From Rhipicephalus microplus (Eukaryota; Arthropoda; Arachnida; Ixodida; Ixodidae), in the NCBI RefSeq assembly GCF_043290135.1, contig NC_134701.1:35863501-35927500 (forward strand): a stretch of 64,000 nucleotides of DNA. The letters are read 5' to 3'. This document shows, one piece after another, positions 21,838 through 50,195 of the stretch. The notes below the pieces were generated by a model. That model worked only from the letters and a program-made list of their open reading frames with translations. It was not told the DNA's origin and did no database searches. How positions within the stretch are numbered: position 1 is the first letter of the stretch; each line of letters starts with the position of its first letter. The translations under genes were made by a program, and so were the position numbers.

Positions 21838-24538
21838 TCATTCTGTTACAGTTCGGGGAAAAAAAGAATATTTAAAAACATTGTTCTTGCATTTAAATGG
21901 CACTAATGAGTATGGATGTCGTAGCCTTGTAGAATAACCGCTGGAAAAAGAAATGTAGTCACACGTTTGGCTCTGTAACTTACCCTTGACAATTTTAAAC
22001 ATGAACTTAAGGCGAGCGATTTTATTTCTAACTGTAATGCTTTTCAAGTCTGCTTGGTGAAGTAACTGAGTAATAGATGATGGATCGTAACTGTTAAAAA
22101 TAAATCGTACAGCCTTACTCTGAACTCTATCCAACTTACGTGTGTTTGTCTGTGTAAACGGATCCCAAATAATATTTGCATATTCTAAAATTGGCAGGAT
22201 TAATGCTTTGAAAGCGGCGAGCTTACAGATGGTAGATGCCCTCTTGAGAGACCTCCTTAAAAAATGAAGTTTAGACAATGCCTTATTAGAAATAGCTGTG
22301 ATATGACTATCCCAGTGAATGTTATCAGTTATAATAAGACCTAGATATTTGAACTCATTGACACGATTTAATGATTTACGATCAACTGTATATGTATATA
22401 AAAGAGGATTTTTCTTGTTACTTATGGTCATTACAGCGCATTTGTCGTAATTCACAGCCATCTGCCATGTCCTGCACCAACGCATCACTTTATCTAATTC
22501 AAAATTCAGTGCATTTTGATCTGAAGTTGAATTTATCTCACTATACAAAACACAATCGTCGGCATATAGTCTTATTTTAACGCCACAGTCATCCACCATG
22601 TCATTTATAAAAAAGAAGGAACAATAACGGTCCTAAAACTGATCCCTGGGGGACACCCGAATCTACAGGCAGCTTTTGTGAGAAATGTTCAATAAAAACA
22701 ACATACTGTTTTCGACATCCCAGGTATGCTTGTATCCATTGACAAAGCTGTGTGTTTTTTAATACTGTCCAAAGTTTCATAAGTAGTCTGGAATGAGAGA
22801 TTTTGTCGAAGGCCTTCGCGAAGTTTAAAAAAACAGCATCTATCTGTGACTGGTTATTTATGACTAGTGCAAAGTCATGGACAATTTCAACCAATTGTGT
22901 TACTGTGGAAAACCCACGCCTAAAACCATGCTGAGCTGGTGAAAGTACCGAGTGCGACTCCAAAAAGCAGGAAATGTGTTTATGTATTATGTGTTCCAAT
23001 AACTTGCAGCATGTGCAAGTCAAAGCTATTGGGCGATAATTACAAACCAACTGTTTATCTCCATGTTTGAATAAAGGCTTAACTTTAGAGAATTTCCAAT
23101 CCTCAGGCAGGACACCTCTGGATAACGATTCATTAAAAATAATTGTCCAAAATTTTGAGGACCATTCAGCATATCTCTTTAAAAAGGCATTTGGTAAGTC
23201 ATCTGGGCCACAAGATTTTCTTACATTCAAATTCAGTAATAATTCAAATACGCCAGCTTCTGTGACTTCCAGATTTTCAATGGGAGGCTGGTCTTTAAAC
23301 TTGCTAAAAGTGGGGGTGGTTTTGTCATCACAAGTAAAAACAGATGCGAAGTGTTCGTTAAATGCATTGGCTATTTCTGTTTCATCTGATGTGCAAACAT
23401 TATTTATAACAAACGTGTCTCTATTGGATGACTTTGGCCTTATAAAATGCCAAAAATGAGACGACGATTCCTTCATCATGTGAGTTAACTTTACATCGTA
23501 AAAACTGCGTTGTTCGATCTTCATCTTATCTTTTAGTTGTCGAGACAGATCGCGGATCGGAGAACGTGTTGTGACACTCGTGTGCTTTTTTAGTGATTTC
23601 CGAAGACGATTAATTTTTCTCTTAATGTGAATTATATCTCGTGTAATCCAGAGTTTCGACATATGTACCTTCTTTTTCTTGAAAGGAACAAAAAGCTGCA
23701 TGCACGCATGCGCAGTGTTCTTATACTTTAACCCTAGAGCGTTAAGATCACTCAAACCCAGATTAACACTTTCGCAAAGTTCGTCGTAGGCTATCTCCAG
23801 TCTGTCTATGATGGATGCATCGTCGGAAGAATGAAATACTGGCACACGTGTGTATTTAACATCATTTTTGTACTTCAGCGAGTGAAGCTCAACCAAAACT
23901 GCCATGTGATCTGAAATACCTGTAACCACTTCGCAGTCAATTTTTCCGGAAATATTACCATTCACAAAGACAAGATCAAGAATAGATTTACTGTTATCTT
24001 GCACACGAGTGCAATCACTAACTAGTTGCGTTAAATCAAAATGTAAGGCAATGTCAATAAGCGCTTCATCGTTAATGGGATCAGAACTTCCTGCGCTAAA
24101 CGAAGACCAGTTGATGCCTGGAAGGTTGAAGTCTCCACATAAAATAAGCTTGGTAGTGTGATTTGTTTTAGACGAAATATATAGCTGTAATTGTTCTAAA
24201 ACCTCAGGGATTGAGACGGGGGGCCTATACACAACTCCAATAATAAGGCTTTCTTTTCTATCGATAAGCTTACAAAATAAAGCCTCAACGCCAGAAGCAT
24301 CAGGCATGCGTGCTATCCTGTAAATATTTTTAACCAGCAACGCAACTCCGCCCCCTCTGGAACCACGATCCCTTCTGTACACGTTGAACCCCGAAGGCCC
24401 AATTTCGCTGTCATAGACACCGTCATAAAGCCATGTTTCTGTGAGTGCGACTACGTCGGGGTCATGACGTGCTATCAGGTGTTCAAGATCGAGCTCTTTG
24501 TTCAGAATGCTACAGCAATTCACATTTAACAGTTTCAA
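21838..24538 (-). pseudogene. LINE A ORF2: endonuclease and reverse transcriptase
   Basis: The polyprotein nicks target DNA and copies the LINE RNA into it. The N-terminal apurinic-type endonuclease shows LNVNCCSILNKELDLEH, ALTETWLYDG, RRDRGSRGGGVALLV, CGDFNLPGINW and TGISDHMAVLV. The RT shows CNYRPIALTCTCCKLLEHI, HGFRRGFSTVTQLVE, NFAKAFDKISH and SGVPQGSVLGPLLFL, then, after a frameshift, the catalytic RLYADDCVLYSE. The frameshift is a +1 in a T run (the A6 at 22609-22614 on the plus strand; five would keep frame), which separates 22601-24538 from 21838-22599. Without it the frame would be about 900 codons, usual for CR1/L2-type ORF2. No RNase H. Key catalytic residues are present, so only one base change separates this gene from an open frame. 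Confidence 0.92.
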
Positions 24539-24556
24539 TGAACGCGGGCTTTCCTG

Positions 24557-25476
24557 TCACTTCGGCACGTACCTGGGAAGGGCAACCATATCATTCCTGG
24601 CCTCGTCCCAAACGAACAGCTTTCCATTCACAGACACCTTATCGAAGAGTAGTTTAACACGTTCATTTCGTTCCCTGTTTACAACTGTGCTGTCCCATAG
24701 ATTCTTCCTGGCCTGACGCACCTTTTGTGAAAAGTCCTCAGTTACATATAAGCCCGAGTCTTTAAGTTTCACACAGTTCCTCAAAATTTCCAGTTTTTCG
24801 CGATAATCTATTAATTTGACAATTACAGGTCTTGTTTTATCAGGCCGCTTTGAGCCAAGCCGATGGCATCTTTCGATGCCGGTTACTGTTAAGTCTAACT
24901 TGCCCTTAAAGAAGTCATCAGTTATGCGGGAAGTATCATCTTGAGGTTCAGAGACACCATGAATGATAATGTTGTTCCTCCGACTTCGATTTTCAAGGTC
25001 ATCTACTTTTTCTGCTATGGAAGTAATGGCGCTTTTCATCGTGCTTACGTGCAACTCAACAGCAGCAACCTTGTTTTGGCATACTGATAGATTTTCTAAA
25101 CCGCATTCCAATGATTCTAGTCGATCTTTAAATTGAGCTAATGTGTTTGTTATGTCTTTCTGTGAACTGTCAAATTTGTCCGCTTCATCAACTCTTTTTG
25201 GCCTGCGAGTACCTCGAGAAGTAGGCTGTGATCACTTGAGTTTTCTGATGATGATTCTTTGCCACGCACAGACTCACTAGATCCCTTGGGTCCAGGATTC
25301 GACTCAACGTCACCACAGAGGGATAATAAATCCAGTAAGTGCAGGCAAATCACAACAATACGCTCTAGACATTAAGGGCAAGGTAGCAGCACGAGAAAAA
25401 CATTATTACTTTTAAATGATTTATCTCCAGGTAAATAACTAACCTGTATAAGAAACAGAAAAGGCTTGTAGTGCAT
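24557..25476 (-). pseudogene. LINE A ORF1: leader, 2A-like motif, nucleic-acid-binding protein
   Basis: The start is taken as the ATG at 25474-25476, inside the last monomer, because it lies 29 nt below the predicted transcription start equivalent. After about 34 codons (HYKPFLFLIQ, then KSFKSNNVFLVLLPCP) there is a TAA at 25372-25374. Then a hydrophobic run (IVVICLHLLDLLSLC) leads into the 2A-like motif GDVESNPGP at 25288-25314. A frameshift near 25195 (A/T run) precedes the main ORF1 body at 24557-25111: a coiled-coil-like part (KVDDLENRSRRNNIIIHG) and an RRM/C-terminal-domain-like part (RPVIVKLIDYREKLEILR, LYVTEDFSQKVRQARKNLW). LINE ORF1 proteins bind the RNA as chaperones. The layout matches LINE B ORF1, which is open throughout. 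Confidence 0.82.
25288..25314 (-). promoter_or_regulatory. 2A-like ribosome-skipping motif, LINE A
   Basis: Encodes G-D-V-E-S-N-P-G-P, an exact match to the 2A consensus D-(V/I)-E-x-N-P-G-P. In known 2A peptides the ribosome fails to join the last Gly-Pro and releases the upstream product. The upstream residues are hydrophobic (LLDLLSLC), as in functional 2A. Activity is not shown here. Confidence 0.8.
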
Positions 25477-25630
25477 AGTTGCAGACGCGCTGCCACCTTG
25501 CCCACTGGAGCTGCAGGACCAAGCCGGCGAAGTTATAAGGTTCTCCGTTGATGACGCTCCCCGGAAGGTGACGTGGAAGTCAGCAGGTAGGATGGGCGGT
25601 TCCAGTGAAGGTGGCTCCGTAAAACAGCAG

Positions 25631-25865
25631 TGTTGTGTCTTCGCGGTTTCTGTGTGTGTGTGCGCGCGCACCTGTTGACGCCTCAGCTGGCCGCCTGCAC
25701 CACATCGGACTTTTGTTACTACCACGTGCGCATCGTTATCTGACTAACACTACGCTGCCTATAAATACGTCATACACTTTTGAATAAACGTTCTTTTCAT
25801 TCTGCTGACTACGTTGACACATTGCTGGTCCGGCGCTGCTATGCGCACACCATGGCTATGCTACA
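25631..25865 (+). repeat. 5' LTR of gypsy 25631-30149
   Basis: Starts TGTTGTGTCTTCGCGG, ends GGCTATGCTACA. It carries a TATAAAT box at about 25761 and AATAAACG polyadenylation signal at about 25784. It differs from the 3' LTR by one T/C in the GT/GC run and one C/T (GGCCGCC against GGCTGCC). Confidence 0.95.
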
Positions 25866-25877
25866 GTGGCGACGAGG

Positions 25878-28800
25878 ATGTTCACCACCCATGCAGTGAA
25901 AGACGACCCTGAACCTGACACTACGGAAAATCGAGTAACCAAGGCGATCATGGCTCACCACCAGCTTCCGGACTTCGAAGAGAGCAAAGATAAGTGGACG
26001 CCATACCTTATCAAAGTCGAAGCATACTTTGAAGCGAATGCCATTGAAGACTCGACTAAGAAAAGAGCATTGCTGGTTGCTGCCTTAAGCACACACACGA
26101 TACAAGTGCTGGCAGGGAAGGTGGCTCCACGCAAGCCGAATGCGCTGACTTAAGAAGAAGTCGTGGCAGTGTTGAGTGAGCACTACGACCCCAAGCGACA
26201 TGAAATCACAGAAAGTTACAAGTTTTTCAGTCGATGTCAAGCGGAGGGTGAGCCCATTAATGAATTCCTGGTCGACATTCGCCGAATAGCTGATAATTGC
26301 AATTTTGGCAGTGCATTAAATCGCATGCTACGAGATCGCATTGTGTGTGGTGTCCGGTCAAGTGCACTACAGAAGCAGCTACTTGCGAAGCGGGAATTAA
26401 CATTAGAAGACGCTGAAGCGATGGTCCTTTCAGCTGAAGCTGCAGATAGTGGCGTGAAAAACATAAACGGATCTGGATTGACACCAGTGTTAAAAGTACA
26501 AGCGTATCAGCAGAAAACACCGCAAGACGAGAGACGGAGGGCTACACGTCAAGAATGCTCAAGGTGCGGTAGTGCAAAGCACAATGAGAGCGGTTGCACC
26601 TGGTCTAACGCTCGCTGTTATCGCTGTGGAGGACGCGGTCACCTTGCGAGGAAATGCCGAAGCCGCGGTCCTCACGAGCAAGGAACAGCAAGCAGGGCAC
26701 AAACCAACATTCTCACGGGGACGGAAGGTTCGACAGACGACGAACACGAAGCAGCGCACATCTGGACCTTGGCTTCGGAACGGAAGAGTTGTCTGGTGCC
26801 ACCAATTCGCCGAACGTTCTCTTGGTGCGGTGTGCAGCTTACCATGGAAGTTGATACTGGGTCGCCCGTTTGTGTTATCCCACGTCAACTGTACGAGAAG
26901 CACCGCGACCAATGGCCGAAACTGAGACCATCCAGTGTGAAATTATCCTGCTACACAGGACGACTGCCAGTGCTTGGGGAGCTTGCGCTCAGTGTTTCTC
27001 ATAAGGGAGTGACGGCGGAGTGTGCGCTGACCATGTTAGACTGTGCGGGACCAAGCCTCTGTGGTCGAGATTTAATTCAGCTGCTGAACGCCGCTGGTGC
27101 TCCGGTGGTTCGCGTTGCAGGAGACTCTGAGCCCACAGAACAAACGGGGAAGCCCAGTGTGAATAGCATATTCAACGACTTCAACGACGTGTTTTCCGAG
27201 GAACTGGGGCTCATCACAGGCCCTCCGGTCAGTCTGCACCTGAAAGAAGGTGCCGTACCTAAGTTCTGTAAGTCCAGACCCATTCCATATGCGCTACGCG
27301 ACCGCGTGTCACTTGAACTTGATCGGTTAGTGTCCTTAGGCGTGTTATCACCAGTGGCACACTCGGAATGGGCGTCACCTATAGTCGTAGTTCTTAAGAA
27401 AGACGGCGCAGTGAGAATCTGCGGTGATTTCAAGGCCACAGTGAATCCCGCATGCGCCACTGAACAATATCCCTTGCCTATCATTGAAGATATGTTTGCG
27501 CAACTACACGATGGGGATTGTTTCAGCACACTGGATTTACGGGACGCATACAATCAAGTGGCACTGGATGAGTCGGCAAAGAAAATTTGCGTCATTAACA
27601 CACCAAGAGGGCTTTTTTGCTACAACCGACTGCCTTTCGGAATAGCCTCTGCACCCGCGATATTCCAAAGAAAAATGGATGAGGTTCTAGCTGGTCTGGT
27701 GGGTGCACAAGCTTACCTTGACGATGTGCTCATTTCTGAAAAATCAAGCGACAGTGGTGAAAGGCTGAAAAACGTTTTGAAGCGGTTTCGAGAGAGAGGC
27801 GTAAAGTTGAGACACGATAAGTGCAAGCTGCGCAGCCCAGCAGTTACCTATCTCGGGCATCGCATCGATCGCGATGGGCTTCAACCGACAGAGAAAAACC
27901 TCAATGCTATCATGCAGGCGCAGAGCCCCCGTAATGTCAGCGAACTGCGGTCTTTTTTGGGAATGATCACGTTCTACGCGAGGTTTCTGCCTAACATGTC
28001 GACCACACTTTTTCCTTTGTATCAGCTGCTGGAAAAGAATGCGCGCTGGCACTGGGAACAGCCTCAAGAGCTTGCGTTTAAGGTGGCTAAGGAAAGCCTC
28101 AAAGCAGCCAAGGTTCTCGTCCATTTCGACCCTTCGAAGGAACTAAAACTTGAGTGCGACGCGTCGCCATACGGAGTGGGCGCGGTCTTGTTTCACACGA
28201 TAGGAAACGTCCACAGGCCGATCGGCTTTCGCTCGCGTACGTTAACACAGGCGGAGCGCAACTATTCACAGCTCGAGCGAGAGGCACTGGCACTGGTATT
28301 TGGCGTAACTAAATTCCGGGACTACCTTCTAGGTCGGGAATTCACCTTGGTGACTGACCACCAACCGTTGCTGGGCCTGTTGAGGTCAGACAGGCAGACG
28401 CCCACAATGGCCGCTGCCCGGATCCAACGTTGGGCGCTTCAGCTGGGGGCCTACCAGTACCAGCTGCAGTACGCCCCAGGACGACAGATGCTGAATGCTG
28501 ATGCCTTAAGCCGCCTGCCGCTGCAAACTACGGAAACTGACGAAGATGGTGAGCCACCCGAATATGTACTCTCGCTAAACCAGCTGAACAACGGTGTCGT
28601 GACAACGCGTGAGCTGAAGGCTTTCACCGCTTCGGATCCTGTCCTGGCAAAAGTCAAACGGTACATATTACATGGGTGGCCCAGACACGCCAACGGGCTG
28701 GCAAGGGACATACTGCCATTTTTTGACCGTAAGCTAGAGCTATCCGTTGCACATGACCTTGTTTATTGGGGCAATAGGGTCATAATACCAGCCGAAGCAA

Positions 28801-44998: not shown

Positions 44999-45194
44999 AA
45001 TATGAGACAAGTTTTATTTTATTTTATTCATACTGCAGACTACAAAACGTGGTCCAAGCAGGACGGGCAATCAGGAATCACAAAAACAGAGGACTAAGAT
45101 TGATCACGAACGTAATAAATAACAAAGTGAGTAAGATGAGGAAATATATACAGTGCTACATCAACAAATATACACTATGAGACAAACATACATA

Positions 45195-47930
45195 CTATGC
45201 AAGGCGGTCACACTCAGACAAGGTGTTCCACTCAGACACTGTTCGCGGAAAAAATGAAAATTTATATGTATCTGTTCTAGCAAAATATGGTGTAAAAGAG
45301 TTTGGTTGGTGATGTCGTGTATATCTGGTTGACAAAGGGGTTAAATACAATGAAGGGTCAATCGCCACTCTATGGTTAAGCAAGGAACTCAGGAAGTCTA
45401 AGCGCAGTTGCCTTCTTCTAGACTGAAGTAGTGGAATGTTGTTACCTGACATTAGTTCAGATGGAGAATCCGTGTGACGAAATTTAGAATATATAAAGCG
45501 AACTGCTTTTCTCTGAATTCTTTCCAATTTGTCTATGTTACATTTGGTGTAGGGATCCCACACTACGCATGCGTACTCCAATTTTGGTCGAATGTAGGAT
45601 TGATAACACAGAAGTTTTACACTTGATGGCGAATTGCGGAGCTTGTGTCTCAGGAAGCATAATTTTCTGAAAGCAGATGCACAAATGTTTTCAATGTGTG
45701 AATTCCAAGACAGGTTAGTAGTGAACGTAACACCTAGATATTTGTAGTTATTGACCTGTTTAAGTGTAGAAGAACCAAGGGAGTAAGCATAGTGAAGGGG
45801 ATATTTTTTTCGAGTTATACACATGGAAACTGTTTTTTCTGTATTTACAATCATACCCCATTTGTTGCACCATTTGTATATGTAGTCTAGATTTTTGTGT
45901 AGCTCTATTTGATCATGTTTGTTATGAATTTCACGGAATAAAACGCAGTCGTCTGCGAACAAACGAATCTGGACGGTTGGCTCAATTACATCTACAATAT
46001 CATTTATGTAACACAAGAATAGCAAGGGCCCCAATACACTGCCTTGGGGCACACCCGACGTGACTGGCAAAAGACTCGAATTTTGACCCTCGATGGCGAC
46101 GTACTGCACCCGATTATTCAGGTATTCAGCTACCCATGCGACCAATACCTTCGGAAGACCTATTTTATTTAATTTGTAGATTAATTTCTCATGAGGAACT
46201 TTATCAAAGGCCTTACAAAAGTCTAGAAAAATGGTGTCTATCTGAATGTTGTCATCGAGGGCGCTGGCAAATGCATGCGCAATGGTAACAAGCTGCGTCA
46301 CGGTCGAATACTTTTTTCTAAACCCGTGCTGAAAATGTGTTAGTATGGAGTGTGTTTCAAGAAATTCTGTAATCTGGTTCGCTATAATGTGTTCTATTAG
46401 TTTACAGCATGAGGAAGTTAGCGATATTGGCCTGTAATTAGGTACTGATAATCTGTCGCCTTTTTTGAAGATAGGCGCCACTCGGGCCATTTTCCAGTCA
46501 CGCGGCAAAGTTGCTGTTGACAGGGAAGCATTGAAGATTATAAAGAGGAATTTGCCAACGTATTCGGCATAACGTCGGAGAAAGACATTGGGCAGTTCGT
46601 CAGGACCACAACTCTTTTTCGTATTTAGGTTTACAAGCATGGAAACCAATCCAGCATATGAAATGAAATTGACCTCGAATGGTTGAGATGACGCTACAGA
46701 AAACGTAAATGCTCCGGAAACATTAAACACGCTATGAAAGTATGTGTTGAAATGATTTGCAATGTCGCCAGGATTTGTAACTATGCGGCTGTCAAGTACA
46801 ATCTTTGAAATGGGTTTCTTCCTATCTTTAAGATAATTCCAGAACTTGGAAGGATCATTCTTTATAAAGTCGGGCATTAAGGTTTTAAAGTAGTATTCTT
46901 TTGAGCGATGCATTTTTTCAGCAAGGACTCTTTGGTGCTCCTTGATAACTGCGCGCTGCGCATGCTGCTTTCTTAGCCGTTTAACTTTTCTTTTTAGTTT
47001 AACAATTTCATGCGTCATTCATTGCGTACGTTTATGCGTTCGTTTGGGTTTGCTAGGGATAAAGTTGTTAATACAGTATTGGCACGTCTCAACAAATTTT
47101 TCCCAGAGAGCGCACGTGCCTAAAGCGTCATCGTTAAATTCTGCAAGTACAGTTTCCATGTATTCTATTACACGGTCATCATCAGCTCTCGAGTAATCCT
47201 TAAAATACTGCATGGGTGATTTTTGGTGGCTACTGCATTGGAACAGAGGAATTGTCACGCTTACAAGTTCATGATCTGAAAGCCCCTGTTCCACGACTAC
47301 AGTATATCCTGAAAAAGCACGTTTTACGAATACCAAATCTAGTATAGAGCTTGCATGTCCTTGGACGCGTGTTGGTTGCCTGACTATTTGAGTTAGATCG
47401 TGAGCGAGCATAATATCAAAAACAGCGTTAGCATTTTTACTGAACTGGGAACAGGTCAGCGCCTCCCAGTCTACACTTGGCAAATTTAGGTCTCCTACCA
47501 AAAAGATTTGCTTATTAAAAAACCTTGACATATGTTCTTTCAGAAAAGTTAGGTACTCCGGGATCGCATCTGGAGGCCTGTAACATGCGTACAAGATAAA
47601 GCTATGTCCCCAGCAGGACAATTGTACGCACAAGCATTCAAGAATGCCAACATCAGCAGCAATCGTTGCTTCGATATCTGGTTTGACAAGGATGGCTACT
47701 CCCCCTCCTCTGGCAGATCGGTCTTTTCGATACACGTTGTAACAGGGGGGAAATACCTCGTCATCACTAATCTCCTCTCGCAACCACGTCTCCGTTATCA
47801 CCGCAATATGGGGATCATACTGCATGAGCATGCTTTCCAAGGAATCTATTTTATTAGTGACACTGCGCAAGTTTATGTTAACTAGTCTAAGTTCTTTTCG
47901 TTTGTAGGTGTTCCCGCTATTTTTACACAA
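45195..47930 (-). pseudogene. LINE B ORF2: endonuclease and reverse transcriptase, one nonsense codon
   Basis: Endonuclease part (47022-47930): RLVNINLRSVTNKIDSLE, VITETWLREEISDDE, RKDRSARGGGVAILVK, VGDLNLPSVDW, LSDHELVSVTI. RT part (45195-47018): VPNYRPISLTSSCCKLIEHI, HGFRKKYSTVTQLVTIA, DFCKAFDKVPHEKLI, TSGVPQGSVLGPLLFLCYIN, catalytic LFADDCVLF, and a thumb with YKYLGVTFTTNLSW, YIRPKLEYACVVWDPY and RIQRKAVRFIYS. It ends FFPRTVSEWNTLSE. A TGA at 47019-47021 splits the frame; both halves are in register, and a Trp at this place would fit the family. The product would nick the target and prime reverse transcription of the LINE RNA. No other break is seen in 911 codons, so this copy is one base from open. 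Confidence 0.93.
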
Positions 47931-47992: not shown

Positions 47993-48886
47993 TTATGATT
48001 GTCGCGGCTTGTGGCTTCGCGTATTTGGCCGACGGATTTCGGTTTCTACGGTACTTCTGGCATCGTTTTTTTGAACGGGCACTATATCATTTTTGTCTTC
48101 GTCCCAGACGTATTCCTTCTTGTTGATATATAGCTTGTTGTACACTAGCGAGGCTTTATCGCCATTATCTCGATTCGTTTTACAGCTCCGCCATAGTTTT
48201 CTTCTGATTTCCCGTACTCTTACAGAGAAATCCTCCCCAATAGAAAAATCTGTGTTTTTTAGTTTGAAACACTGTTTCAAAATTTTTGTCTTGTCTCTTG
48301 AATCTAGTAGTTTGAGAATCACGGGCCTGACCTTTCCGGGTGATGGCCGCCCCAGTCTATGGATACGTTCAATAGTCACCGGATCTAGCTCAAGAATACC
48401 CTTTATTATATCATTGTTCACAGTGGACTCTAGCGACTCGTTTGTCTCTTCTTTCGATTCAGGTAGTCCGTAAACAATGATATTGGACCTTCTGCTTTGG
48501 TTTTCAAGATCATCAATCCTTGCTTCAAGATTCGCAATCTGTTGCTGACATGACGTGACCTTTATCTCTAGGTTGGCTAATGAATCTAATTTTTTGTCTA
48601 TATCGGTCAAGCGTTTTTCCTTAATTTCCTTGATGTCAGTTGCAATTTCACTAAGTTGCTTTGCTATTTGTTCTAGAGTAGGGCCGGGGTTAGTCTCAAT
48701 ATCGCCACTTAGCAGAAGGATCCTCCTAACAGATGACGCCACATCAAACAATATGCAACATATTCCGCAACCGAACAACCGTGGGCACGGCAACATCACC
48801 AAGAATGGATCGCTAGAACGAAAGCTCTTTCCGTATCGTTTGCTTACCTGTACAAAATACAGGAAGGGATTAGATGCGACCCACAT
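47993..48886 (-). CDS. LINE B ORF1: leader, 2A-like motif, RNA-binding protein
   Basis: The start is the ATG at 48884-48886 in the last monomer: it has a strong CACCACC context and is the first ATG, 23 nt after the predicted cap site, for a transcript starting in that monomer. Residues 1-59 (MWVASNPFLYFVQ..., then LFGCGICCILFDVASSVRRI) are partly hydrophobic. Residues 61-69 are GDIETNPGP, a 2A motif. After it come coiled-coil heptads (SEIATDIKEIKEKRLTDIDK, IANLEARIDDLENQSRR), an RRM-like part (NIIVYGLPESKEE, IERIHRLGR, VRPVILKLLDSRDKTKIL) and a basic C-terminal end. Length 297 residues. The same frame runs unbroken upstream through both complete monomers (to 49486), giving longer possible leaders. 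Fully open, so it may be made. Confidence 0.88.
   Translation of the reverse strand: MWVASNPFLYFVQVSKRYGKSFRSSDPFLVMLPCPRLFGCGICCILFDVASSVRRILLLSGDIETNPGPTLEQIAKQLSEIATDIKEIKEKRLTDIDKKLDSLANLEIKVTSCQQQIANLEARIDDLENQSRRSNIIVYGLPESKEETNESLESTVNNDIIKGILELDPVTIERIHRLGRPSPGKVRPVILKLLDSRDKTKILKQCFKLKNTDFSIGEDFSVRVREIRRKLWRSCKTNRDNGDKASLVYNKLYINKKEYVWDEDKNDIVPVQKNDARSTVETEIRRPNTRSHKPRQS
48680..48706 (-). promoter_or_regulatory. 2A-like ribosome-skipping motif, LINE B
   Basis: Encodes G-D-I-E-T-N-P-G-P, matching D-(V/I)-E-x-N-P-G-P exactly, preceded by IRR/ILLLS-type hydrophobic residues. Skipping would release a 68-residue leader and start the ORF1 protein with Pro. 2A motifs near the N terminus of ORF1 are known in some trypanosome and invertebrate LINEs. 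Confidence 0.82.
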
Positions 48887-48934
48887 GGTGGTGATGCCGC
48901 CGTGCCCAGTGCCAGCCCAGTCCTCGGGAGTGCC

Positions 48935-48941
48935 TTTTATA
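48935..48941 (-). promoter_or_regulatory. TATA box of LINE B monomer 1
   Basis: TATAAAA on the minus strand in the context GGCTATAAAAGGCAC, with TGACGTC at 48956-48962 and CACGTG at 48977-48982 upstream. The predicted start 32 nt downstream is at 48909. Confidence 0.8.
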
Positions 48942-49234
48942 GCCGAACCAGCAGATGACGTCCCCCAGCTACTGGTCACGTGGTGATGTGGTGGTATCTT
49001 GCTTTGGAAAACTGATGGGCTTGTCCACGATAAAGCCGGGAGATTGTCAGTCGGTTTGTGGCAGTCGGAGGCGTTCCACCCATGCGACGGCGCAACTTTC
49101 GTCGCACCAGCGTACGTTTCGTTGATGATGTGCACCAGGCCAAATATCTGTACAAAATACAGGAAGGGATTAGATGCGACCCACATGGTGGTGATGCCGC
49201 CGTGCCCAGTGCCAGCCCAGACCTCGGGAGTGCC

Positions 49235-49241
49235 TTTTATA
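49235..49241 (-). promoter_or_regulatory. TATA box of LINE B monomer 2
   Basis: Identical TATAAAA. Its first T is 32 nt from 49209, which is exactly one period from the element's last base at 49509. So the inserted copy ends where TATA-directed transcription from a third monomer would begin. Confidence 0.82.
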
Positions 49242-49503
49242 GCCGAACCAGCTGATGACGTCCCCCAGCTACTGGTCACGTGGTGATGTGGTGGTATCTT
49301 GCTTTGGAAAACTGATGGGCTTGTCCACGATAAAGCCGGGAGATTGTCAGTCGGTTTGTGGCAGTCGGAGGCGTTCCACCCATGCGACGGCGCAACTTTC
49401 GTCGCACCAGCGTACGTTTCGTTGATGATGTGCACCAGGCCAAATATCTGTACAAAATACAGGAAGGGATTAGATGCGACCCACATGGTGGTGATGCCGC
49501 CGT

Positions 49504-50195
49504 GCCCAGGCCTTCACCGAGGCCTTGACCGAGGCCTTCACCCGTTTTGACTTGCCAGTGGAGTTGATCCTGGACAATGCGTCTTATTCCATGGCCAAGG
49601 TGTTTGTGGGTATGTGTGCTACCTTTGGTATTAAGCATCGCAAAACAGCCACATATCACCCACAGGCCAATCCTACTAAGCAGCTGAACTGGAACCTCAA
49701 GCCCTTGCTGACATCCTTCGCATAGCAATACAGGGATTGGGAAGCCTGTCTTGATGAGATCGGCTTTTCCTAGTGAACAGTGGTCAATCGTTTGACCAGA
49801 TACTGCTTCGGGAGAGATATGCCTAACCCTATGGACCACCTTCTGCGGGTGGCAGTGGGACGTGCGCCACGAAAGCTAGCCCATTTGTCTACACAGTAGA
49901 ACGGTGTTCGCAGATGGACGCAGCCCTCGACGTGGTGCATTCAAACTTGGCAAAAGCGCGAGTTGGATAGAAGGGTCAGTACGACTGGTCGTACAGGGAC
50001 GTGCACTACAATGTCGGTGATCTCGTCCTCTGGCGCCGCCACGTCTTGAGTTATGCCATAAAGTCCATCTTGGCCTCCCTGTCGGCCAAGTCGGCCAATG
50101 TGTCGCCTCTGGTGTTCAAGCTGGCTGACTCTCAAGGGAGACAAGATGGCAGTCCAGTTAACGTCTCCAATCTCAAACTTTTCGTTGCCCGCTGA
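49504..50195 (+). pseudogene. Gypsy integrase core and C-terminus, downstream piece
   Basis: Resumes as AQAFTEALTEAFTRFDLPVE, LILDNASYSMAKVFVG (second Asp), ATYHPQANPTKQLNWNLKPL (the usual Glu place reads Lys-Gln), then a TAG and further stops and frameshifts (near 49725-49930). The end KVNVSNLKLFVAR-like sequence finishes with TGA at 50193-50195. Together with 44893-44998 it forms one gypsy integrase split by LINE B. It is inactive both by stops and by the loss of the catalytic Glu. Confidence 0.82.

What the first reader, a model, noticed from the sequence alone, without database searches (positions are those of the whole stretch)
48848..49509. LINE B: 300-bp tandem promoter monomers open in frame with a 2A-bearing ORF1
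The monomers repeat with a period of exactly 300 bp (100 codons), and the minus-strand frame runs unbroken through both full units into ORF1, which carries GDIETNPGP at residues 61-69 from the last ATG. Transcripts that start in an outer monomer would use an earlier ATG and make leaders longer by 100 residues per unit. A working 2A would then cut every such leader off and give the same ORF1 protein whatever the monomer number. I know of 2A motifs in LINE ORF1 and of tandem L1 monomers, but not of the two combined so that a variable in-frame leader is removed.
Basis: partly seen in the sequence, partly recalled or inferred. Interest (0 to 1): 0.92.

Follow-up and report, generated by a model that had tools for sequence, protein, structure and literature searches.

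The report
In-frame promoter repeats removed by 2A
In ticks, a large group of jumping genes (LINEs) carries tandem copies of its own promoter that double as protein-coding sequence: each extra copy would lengthen the front of the element's first protein by about 100 residues, and a built-in 2A cutting signal very probably removes that front again, so the reading frame is kept although the encoded sequence is free to drift.

Summary
LINE B has a 62-nt partial unit and two 300-bp units, open only in the ORF1 frame and joined to an ORF1 with a canonical 2A motif. Twelve families in this genome share the plan with units of 288-309 bp, all multiples of three. In one chosen copy per family the ORF1 frame is open in 12 of 12, the other frames in 0 of 60. 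Between families the unit body is no more alike than a shuffled control. Copies begin about 24 nt upstream of a unit's ATG, 31 nt after a TATA box. With unit-free queries, 35 of 37 such insertions in two families came from RNAs carrying at least one leader unit. A 2A-trimmed, variable leader is the best explanation; skipping itself is untested, and one in-frame stop is shared by two copies. New here: the unit/ORF1 boundary is a conserved splice donor (CAG|GTRAG, 12 of 12 families), and each unit ends in a splice-acceptor-like stretch. That layout forbids removing units in cis but would allow gaining units by splicing in trans.

The parts
49448..49509 (-). Partial outermost unit: 5' end of the insertion, 23 nt 5'UTR, ATG at 49486, ends in CAG
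49148..49447 (-). Whole unit 2 (300 nt, CAG-to-CAG), open in ORF1 frame; contains TATAAAA 49241-49235, inferred start site about 49210, ATG 49186-49184
48848..49147 (-). Whole unit 1 (300 nt), open in ORF1 frame; contains TATAAAA 48941-48935, inferred start site about 48910, ATG 48886-48884
48842..48847 (-). GTAAGC: splice-donor-like start of the inner leader, directly after the pyrimidine tract and CAG (acceptor-like) that also ends each unit
48680..48847 (-). Inner leader B, not repeated, ends in the 2A motif
48680..48706 (-). 2A motif GDIETNPGP
   Evidence: motif definition in PMC12846837 (passages)
47993..48679 (-). ORF1 protein body after the 2A site, with stop codon
48065..48071 (-). A AAA AAC heptamer in the ORF1 frame; ORF2 lies in the -1 frame
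45195..47930 (-). ORF2: endonuclease (PF14529/PF03372) and reverse transcriptase (PF00078); in this copy the frame is interrupted by one stop at about 47019

Best explanation
Each unit is a complete start module: TATA box, start site about 31 nt later, a 24-nt 5'UTR, an ATG in good context, then about 250 nt of spacer that holds the next module's promoter. An RNA that starts in an outer unit is translated from its first ATG straight through all inner units into ORF1, giving an N-terminal leader of about 100 residues per unit. The 2A site at the end of the inner leader then separates leader and ORF1 protein during translation, so every RNA yields the same ORF1 protein whatever the unit number. 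Selection keeps units a multiple of three and free of stops because most RNAs that get reverse-transcribed start in an outer unit; it cares little what the leader spells. Shown: unit structure, frame, family spread, lack of sequence conservation, position of 5' ends, share of multi-unit RNAs. Inferred: that the 5' ends are start sites, translation from the outermost ATG, and skipping at the 2A.
For: Twelve families, unit lengths 300, 300, 297, 294, 288, 306, 306, 297, 294, 300, 309, 300; ORF1 frame open 12 of 12, other frames 0 of 60 (representatives were picked after one search had shown open leaders). Unit-body amino-acid identity between families 0.325 against 0.341 for shuffled controls, inner leader 0.633. 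Family 1 vs 2: differences at codon positions 42/41/51 in the unit (99 codons), 48/38/135 in the ORF1 body (223 codons). F3 vs F5, the only pair I could align over the whole unit: 80.6% identity, indels of 3 and 6 nt, body differences 15/13/18. 5' ends 22-28 nt upstream of a unit ATG in 29 of 40 loci and 20-28 nt in 23 of 31 loci with a unit. Unit-free queries: 20 of 21 start-anchored family 1 insertions (L010 at 32 nt counted, two flank-sharing pairs merged) and 15 of 16 F8 insertions have at least one whole unit. Base -3 is A or G in 12 of 12, and the first ATG after the start is the in-frame one in 11 of 12. D[VI]E.NPGP in 112 of 128 related proteins.
Against: No RNA or protein data. One in-frame stop in an F8 unit is shared by L061 and L095 of one sub-lineage: either it recurred or a broken leader was transmitted. 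Both units of L091 carry the same 1-nt deletion, so a frameshifted unit was duplicated. Seven of 44 F8 units and 3 of 56 spacings in the mixed sample are not multiples of three. Start-anchored copies with no unit exist (L030; L087; L105). Within families, unit variants show no sign of constraint. The unit dN/dS between families 1 and 2 is 0.59, not 1, so some sequence constraint is possible. Families are related, so the 12 are not independent. The cross-family, unit-free protein search did not complete.
Confidence: 0.78

Rival explanations
1. The leader is a product in its own right: each outer-start RNA makes a signal-peptide-bearing leader protein routed to the ER, and 2A serves to co-express it with ORF1p.
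For: The 12 residues after each unit boundary have a positive mean Kyte-Doolittle value in 12 of 12 families (0.40 to 1.53, against -1.54 to -0.57 after the inner boundary), and T is 68 of 144 at codon position 2 against 26 and 36 at positions 1 and 3. PMC4981915 (abstract and passages) reports an N-terminal 2A-like signal sequence in sea urchin.
Against: The rest of the unit shows no conservation above shuffled controls; windows elsewhere in the body reach higher values in some families (F5 1.51, F12 2.11), and other frames of the same stretch are positive in several. Unit number varies freely.
Confidence: 0.13
2. Only the innermost ATG matters; the open frame upstream is incidental and outer-start RNAs are not translated for ORF1.
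For: A 24-nt 5'UTR could allow some leaky scanning (inference). One shared stop and the duplicated frameshift of L091 show that broken units are sometimes passed on or duplicated.
Against: 35 of 37 start-anchored insertions in two families came from RNAs with one or more units; the outer ATG is the first in 11 of 12 families and in good context; frame kept without sequence conservation.
Confidence: 0.06
3. Open units are chance plus recent common descent.
For: P(open) for a single shuffled unit is 0.037-0.16, and the representatives were chosen after open leaders had been seen.
Against: The product over 12 families is about 6e-15 if independent and unselected (my product of the values); most bodies cannot be aligned and six different lengths are all multiples of three.
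Confidence: 0.02

Closest known systems
2A-bearing APE-type non-LTR retrotransposons (Odon et al. 2013, seen only in the reference lists; paper not held)
   Same: APE-type endonuclease and RT, canonical 2A motif in frame with the element's proteins
   Different: No tandem in-frame promoter units were described in anything I saw
Mouse L1Md tandem promoter monomers (PMC6454616, PMC9022269, PMC2176070; passages)
   Same: Variable number of tandem promoter units upstream of ORF1; copy starts vary with unit number
   Different: Mouse monomers are about 200 nt and separated from ORF1 by a non-monomeric tether; here the units are TATA-bearing, coding, in the ORF1 frame, and the start codon lies inside the unit
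N-terminal 2A-like signal sequences of sea urchin NLR proteins (PMC4981915, abstract and passages)
   Same: Hydrophobic N-terminus with a 2A that separates it from the downstream protein
   Different: Those are single fixed leaders of cellular genes, not a repeated leader of variable length
Recursive splice sites (acceptor fused to donor; recalled, no call)
   Same: Pyrimidine tract, CAG and GTRAG directly joined at the unit/ORF1 boundary
   Different: Here the acceptor half is repeated upstream at every unit, with a single donor at the end; no RNA evidence

Membership tests
APE-type non-LTR retrotransposon (LINE) | APE-type endonuclease and reverse transcriptase in ORF2 | tested here: met
   PF14529/PF03372 and PF00078 above cut-off
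APE-type non-LTR retrotransposon (LINE) | RT clade placement (CR1, L2, Jockey and so on) | not tested
   no RT tree was built
2A (StopGo) element | D(V/I)ExNPGP core motif | tested here: met
   GDIETNPGP in the window; 112 of 128 related proteins
2A (StopGo) element | Separation of the two products during translation | not testable with these tools
   needs a reporter assay
LINE with tandem promoter monomers | Variable number of tandem units upstream of ORF1 | tested here: met
   0 to 8 whole units
LINE with tandem promoter monomers | Units drive transcription | tested here: inconclusive
   TATA at about -31 and clustered 5' ends fit; no expression test
Mouse L1Md-type monomer array | Monomers lie outside ORF1, separated by a tether | tested here: not met
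   units are in the ORF1 frame and hold its start codon
Recursive splice site | Acceptor directly joined to donor (Y-tract CAG|GTRAG) | tested here: met
   12 of 12 families; GTRAG in 36 of 38 single copies
Recursive splice site | Use by the spliceosome | tested here: inconclusive
   protein models fused to non-LINE sequence at the unit start; no RNA data

The most novel reading that the evidence does not exclude
The promoter array regrows by splicing. Every retrotransposition starts downstream of the TATA box it used, so each round loses a promoter unit. The only donor sits after the last unit and an acceptor ends every unit. Within one RNA no unit can be spliced out, but the donor of one transcript can join an acceptor of another (or of a neighbouring copy), stacking whole in-frame units upstream of ORF1. 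The element would thus use the spliceosome to rebuild its promoter, while 2A makes ORF1 indifferent to the array length.
Probability: 0.15. Interest if true: 0.96.

Novelty: new variant of a known kind. Interest (0 to 1): 0.87.

Why it matters
It shows how a LINE can keep promoters inside its transcribed, coding part without paying for it: a self-removing leader makes the protein independent of promoter copy number. It is also a clean case where selection seems to act on the reading frame but hardly on the encoded sequence. The splice-site pair makes an open question testable: how LINEs regain promoter monomers (PMC6454616 says the mechanism remains unclear and names second-strand priming and unequal crossing-over; passages).

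Tried and rejected
Subgenomic ORF2 mRNA from the conserved donor: in the first 1.5 kb of families 1 and 2 the acceptor-like sites found besides the boundary lie at different places, and ORF2 can be reached by a -1 frameshift at A AAA AAC, so I set it aside; the rest of ORF2 was not scanned.

A core-promoter role for GTRAG: rejected, because the unit starts of the 12 representatives, which lie at the same distance from their own start sites, do not carry it.

Mechanism of unit gain from array mosaics: undecided. L031 alternates two unit types with the switch inside about 30 nt around the boundary, but L037 has one switch inside a unit.

Variant classes within families gave no sign of constraint: private unit variants were 63 nonsynonymous, 32 synonymous, 3 stops in family 1 (close to random expectation) and 39, 5, 0 in family 2, where synonymous changes are even fewer than the expected 31%.

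LINE A of the window (21838-25111) has no 2A in the one upstream frame I translated (25003-26101, minus strand); not followed further.

Paper searches (two searches returned nothing) listed no paper whose title or shown start of abstract describes in-frame promoter monomers with a 2A. Five of the listed papers were opened, by passages only. The library is open-access only, and the key 2013 paper is not held.

Counting limits: 40 of the 67 listed non-family-1/2 hits were fetched; 4 of these 40 (L043, L049, L056, L067) gave no 2A motif to the script and were dropped (L049 was later read and has two open 297-nt units). F8: 27 of the 37 listed copies reaching the boundary were analysed, and in one of them (L082) the boundary was not found. 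Searches scored only 40 or 150 candidates, so copy numbers are lower bounds.

Full report
What is there. The finding holds at the stated coordinates. LINE B on the minus strand has a 300-bp tandem unit whose only open frame of six is that of ORF1. Measured from the conserved CAG boundary, the array is a 62-nt partial unit and two whole units (49447-49148 and 49147-48848), followed without a gap by the unrepeated inner leader B, the 2A motif and the ORF1 body. ORF2 follows with an APE-type endonuclease and a reverse transcriptase; in this copy its frame has one stop. The genome is 3.26 Gb. Its contig lengths 513293480, 136578153 and 5129040 are those listed for Rhipicephalus microplus proteins P0001, P0051 and P0047, so I take it to be the cattle tick.

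Other copies of the same family. A search with the unit region and an independent one with ORF1 only (40 of 168 candidates scored) lead to the same set, L001-L030: 30 copies reach the boundary, two pairs of which share flanks (L019/L021, L020/L027), leaving 28 insertions. Their 5' ends are not random. In 29 of 40 loci of families 1 and 2 the element begins 22-28 nt upstream of a unit's ATG. That is about 31 nt after the T of TATAAAA at unit position 245. The simplest reading is that these are RNA start sites. Of 21 start-anchored family 1 insertions (20 at 22-28 nt, plus L010 at 32 nt), one has no whole unit, nine have 1, eight have 2, two have 3 and one has 5. So 20 of 21 were copied from RNAs that carried at least one leader unit. 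The other 7 insertions are cut elsewhere or were not resolved.

Other families. A protein search of the same genome gave 8494 first-look candidates, 150 of them scored. Its query held a unit, so it may favour copies with units. I fetched 40 of the 67 listed hits outside families 1 and 2; 36 could be read by script. (On reading, L041 and L042 proved to be family 2.) A frame-blind measurement of the spacing between boundaries gave 56 spacings in 31 loci, 53 of them multiples of three; the exceptions are 298, 296 and 287, each in one copy of a family whose other copies have 300, 297 and 294; five loci had no whole unit by this measure. I told twelve families apart by their units. Their lengths are 300, 300, 297, 294, 288, 306, 306, 297, 294, 300, 309 and 300. 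I then took one copy of each that had shown an open leader: the ORF1 frame is open in 12 of 12 and 0 of the 60 other frames are. The start pattern is the same: 23 of 31 loci with a unit begin 20-28 nt upstream of the ATG, and where the script's pattern found a TATA it lies 55-56 nt upstream of it, 53 in L061. The -3 base is A or G in 12 of 12.

Frame kept, sequence hardly. Between the 12 families the unit body (without the last 30 codons) has a mean amino-acid identity of 0.325, against 0.341 for shuffled bodies; the inner leader has 0.633. Between families 1 and 2 the unit differs at codon positions 1, 2, 3 by 42, 41 and 51 over 99 codons, while the ORF1 body differs by 48, 38 and 135 over 223; the unit's dN/dS is 0.59, so weak constraint is not excluded. 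F3 and F5 are the only pair I could align along the whole unit: 80.6% identity, two indels of 3 and 6 nt, body differences 15, 13 and 18. This is what one expects if the leader must be translatable but is then thrown away. One part is different: the 12 residues after each unit boundary are on average hydrophobic in all 12 families, with T in 68 of 144 second codon positions against 26 and 36 at the other two; in some families other windows of the body are more hydrophobic still. A signal-peptide-like start may therefore be under selection.

Unit-free sample of a second family. With 222 nt of the F8 inner leader as query, 37 of the 40 listed hits reach the boundary. I analysed 27: the 7 already held and the next 20 in list order; in L082 the boundary was not found. 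They hold 44 whole units, 37 of them multiples of three. The other 7 carry deletions of 1 or 5 nt, none shared between different copies, but the two units of L091 share one: a frameshifted unit was duplicated there. Start-anchored (20-30 nt): 16 of 27, with 0, 1, 2 and 3 units in 1, 6, 6 and 3. Five further 1-kb pieces and L049 add: L105 is a start-anchored F3 copy with no unit, L049 has two open 297-nt units, and of four F5-like copies three have 288-nt units and two (L101, L104) are closed by a stop.

Are disruptions inherited? Over five families (F1, F2, F3, F4, F8) 142 whole units hold 22 different stops or frameshifts (L020 and L082 not placed). One is found in two copies: a stop in unit 2 of L061 and unit 1 of L095, which share four other variants of one sub-lineage while the stop itself is in no other unit compared. 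It either arose twice or was passed on by a broken leader. This and L091 are the clearest results against strict maintenance.

Decay. In family 1, 49 units (14.7 kb) hold 7 frameshifts and 4 stops; 30 ORF1 regions (26.8 kb) hold 36 and 17, of which 15 and 5 come from L030 alone, whose ORF1 does not align to the end. In family 2, 32 units hold none and 10 ORF1 regions hold 9 and 3. The leader is thus no more broken than ORF1; units of one copy are not independent. Within families, unit variants show no constraint by class, so the selection is visible only between families.

Spread. The named hits of the two protein searches (64 listed; 120 listed of 133) are all ticks: Rhipicephalus, Haemaphysalis, Dermacentor, Amblyomma, Ixodes and Ornithodoros. 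Among 31 predicted proteins with a measurable repeat, unit lengths are 98-108 and 111 residues, with one of 78. Gene models are biased towards open frames, so this supports the spread, not the frame argument. P0082, a Rhipicephalus pulchellus entry listed without a genome contig, has two 108-residue units in front of ORF1; I recall, but did not check, that such entries come from a transcriptome.

A second signal at the boundary. At nucleotide level the inner leader begins GTRAG after CAG in 12 of 12 families, although valine could be GTY, arginine CGN and serine TCN. The product of the codon-choice probabilities, treating families as independent, is 6.6e-9. The motif AGGTRAG occurs 12 times in 9054 nt (each unit taken twice plus the inner leader), and GTRAG stands at this boundary in all 12. 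Among single copies it is intact in 36 of 38 (L058 and L072 differ) and in the 26 F8 copies whose boundary was found. In predicted tick proteins a script placed the boundary Q in 106 of 128; in 75 the next two residues are V plus R, S, G or C (31, 29, 12, 3), and most of the other 31 look misplaced, with P0009 and P0098 as real exceptions. Apart from serine's TCN these are residues with G at the second codon position, as a donor GTNNG would demand. Before the boundary, in the units as well, lie a pyrimidine-rich stretch (12-14 of 16) and CAG in all 12 families. Several predicted proteins join non-LINE sequence exactly at a unit start, among them P0047 (sphingosine-1-phosphate lyase isoform X5), P0071, P0056 and P0030, as if the acceptor were used; whether RNA reads support these models I could not see.

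What the splice pair could do. There is one donor, after the last unit, and an acceptor-like stretch at the end of every unit. Linear splicing within the array cannot remove units. Joining two RNAs could add them, in whole and in frame. Since each round of copying starts below the TATA it used, such a gain is needed. Other uses are possible: recruitment of U1 to aid transcription, or circular RNA. Array mosaics do not decide. I hold trans-splicing at 0.15.

Against the literature. Mouse L1 monomers are separated from ORF1 by a non-monomeric tether (PMC9022269, passages), and how monomers are duplicated is described as unclear (PMC6454616, passages). 2A motifs in LINEs and N-terminal 2A-like signal sequences are known (PMC4981915, abstract and passages; PMC12846837, passages). 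In the searches named under Tried and rejected I saw no description of promoter monomers that are coding, in frame and placed before a 2A.

Noticed in passing
window 48065-48071 (-): A AAA AAC slippery heptamer in the ORF1 frame, some 20-25 codons before its stop, in families 1 and 2; ORF2 is in the -1 frame without an ATG near its start, so ORF2 is probably made by -1 frameshifting.
   Followed up: partly
P0002 and P0004 (Haemaphysalis longicornis) against families 1 and 2: The freely drifting unit is 90 of 100 residues identical between H. longicornis P0002 and the window unit, and P0004 looks family-2-like; this hints at recent horizontal transfer between tick genera.
   Followed up: no
P0047, P0071, P0056, P0030, P0072: Predicted proteins with non-LINE N-termini joined exactly at a LINE unit start, two of them host genes by name (P0047) or Pfam domain (P0071).
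   Followed up: partly
L031 and L037: Arrays of 6 and 8 units; L031 alternates two unit types three times, L037 is a mosaic with one switch inside a unit.
   Followed up: partly
window 21838-25111 (-): A second APE-type LINE (LINE A) with endonuclease and RT but no 2A in the one upstream frame translated.
   Followed up: no
window about 45012-45033 (-): LINE B seems to end in a short AATAAAATAAAATAAAA run rather than a plain poly(A) tail.
   Followed up: no
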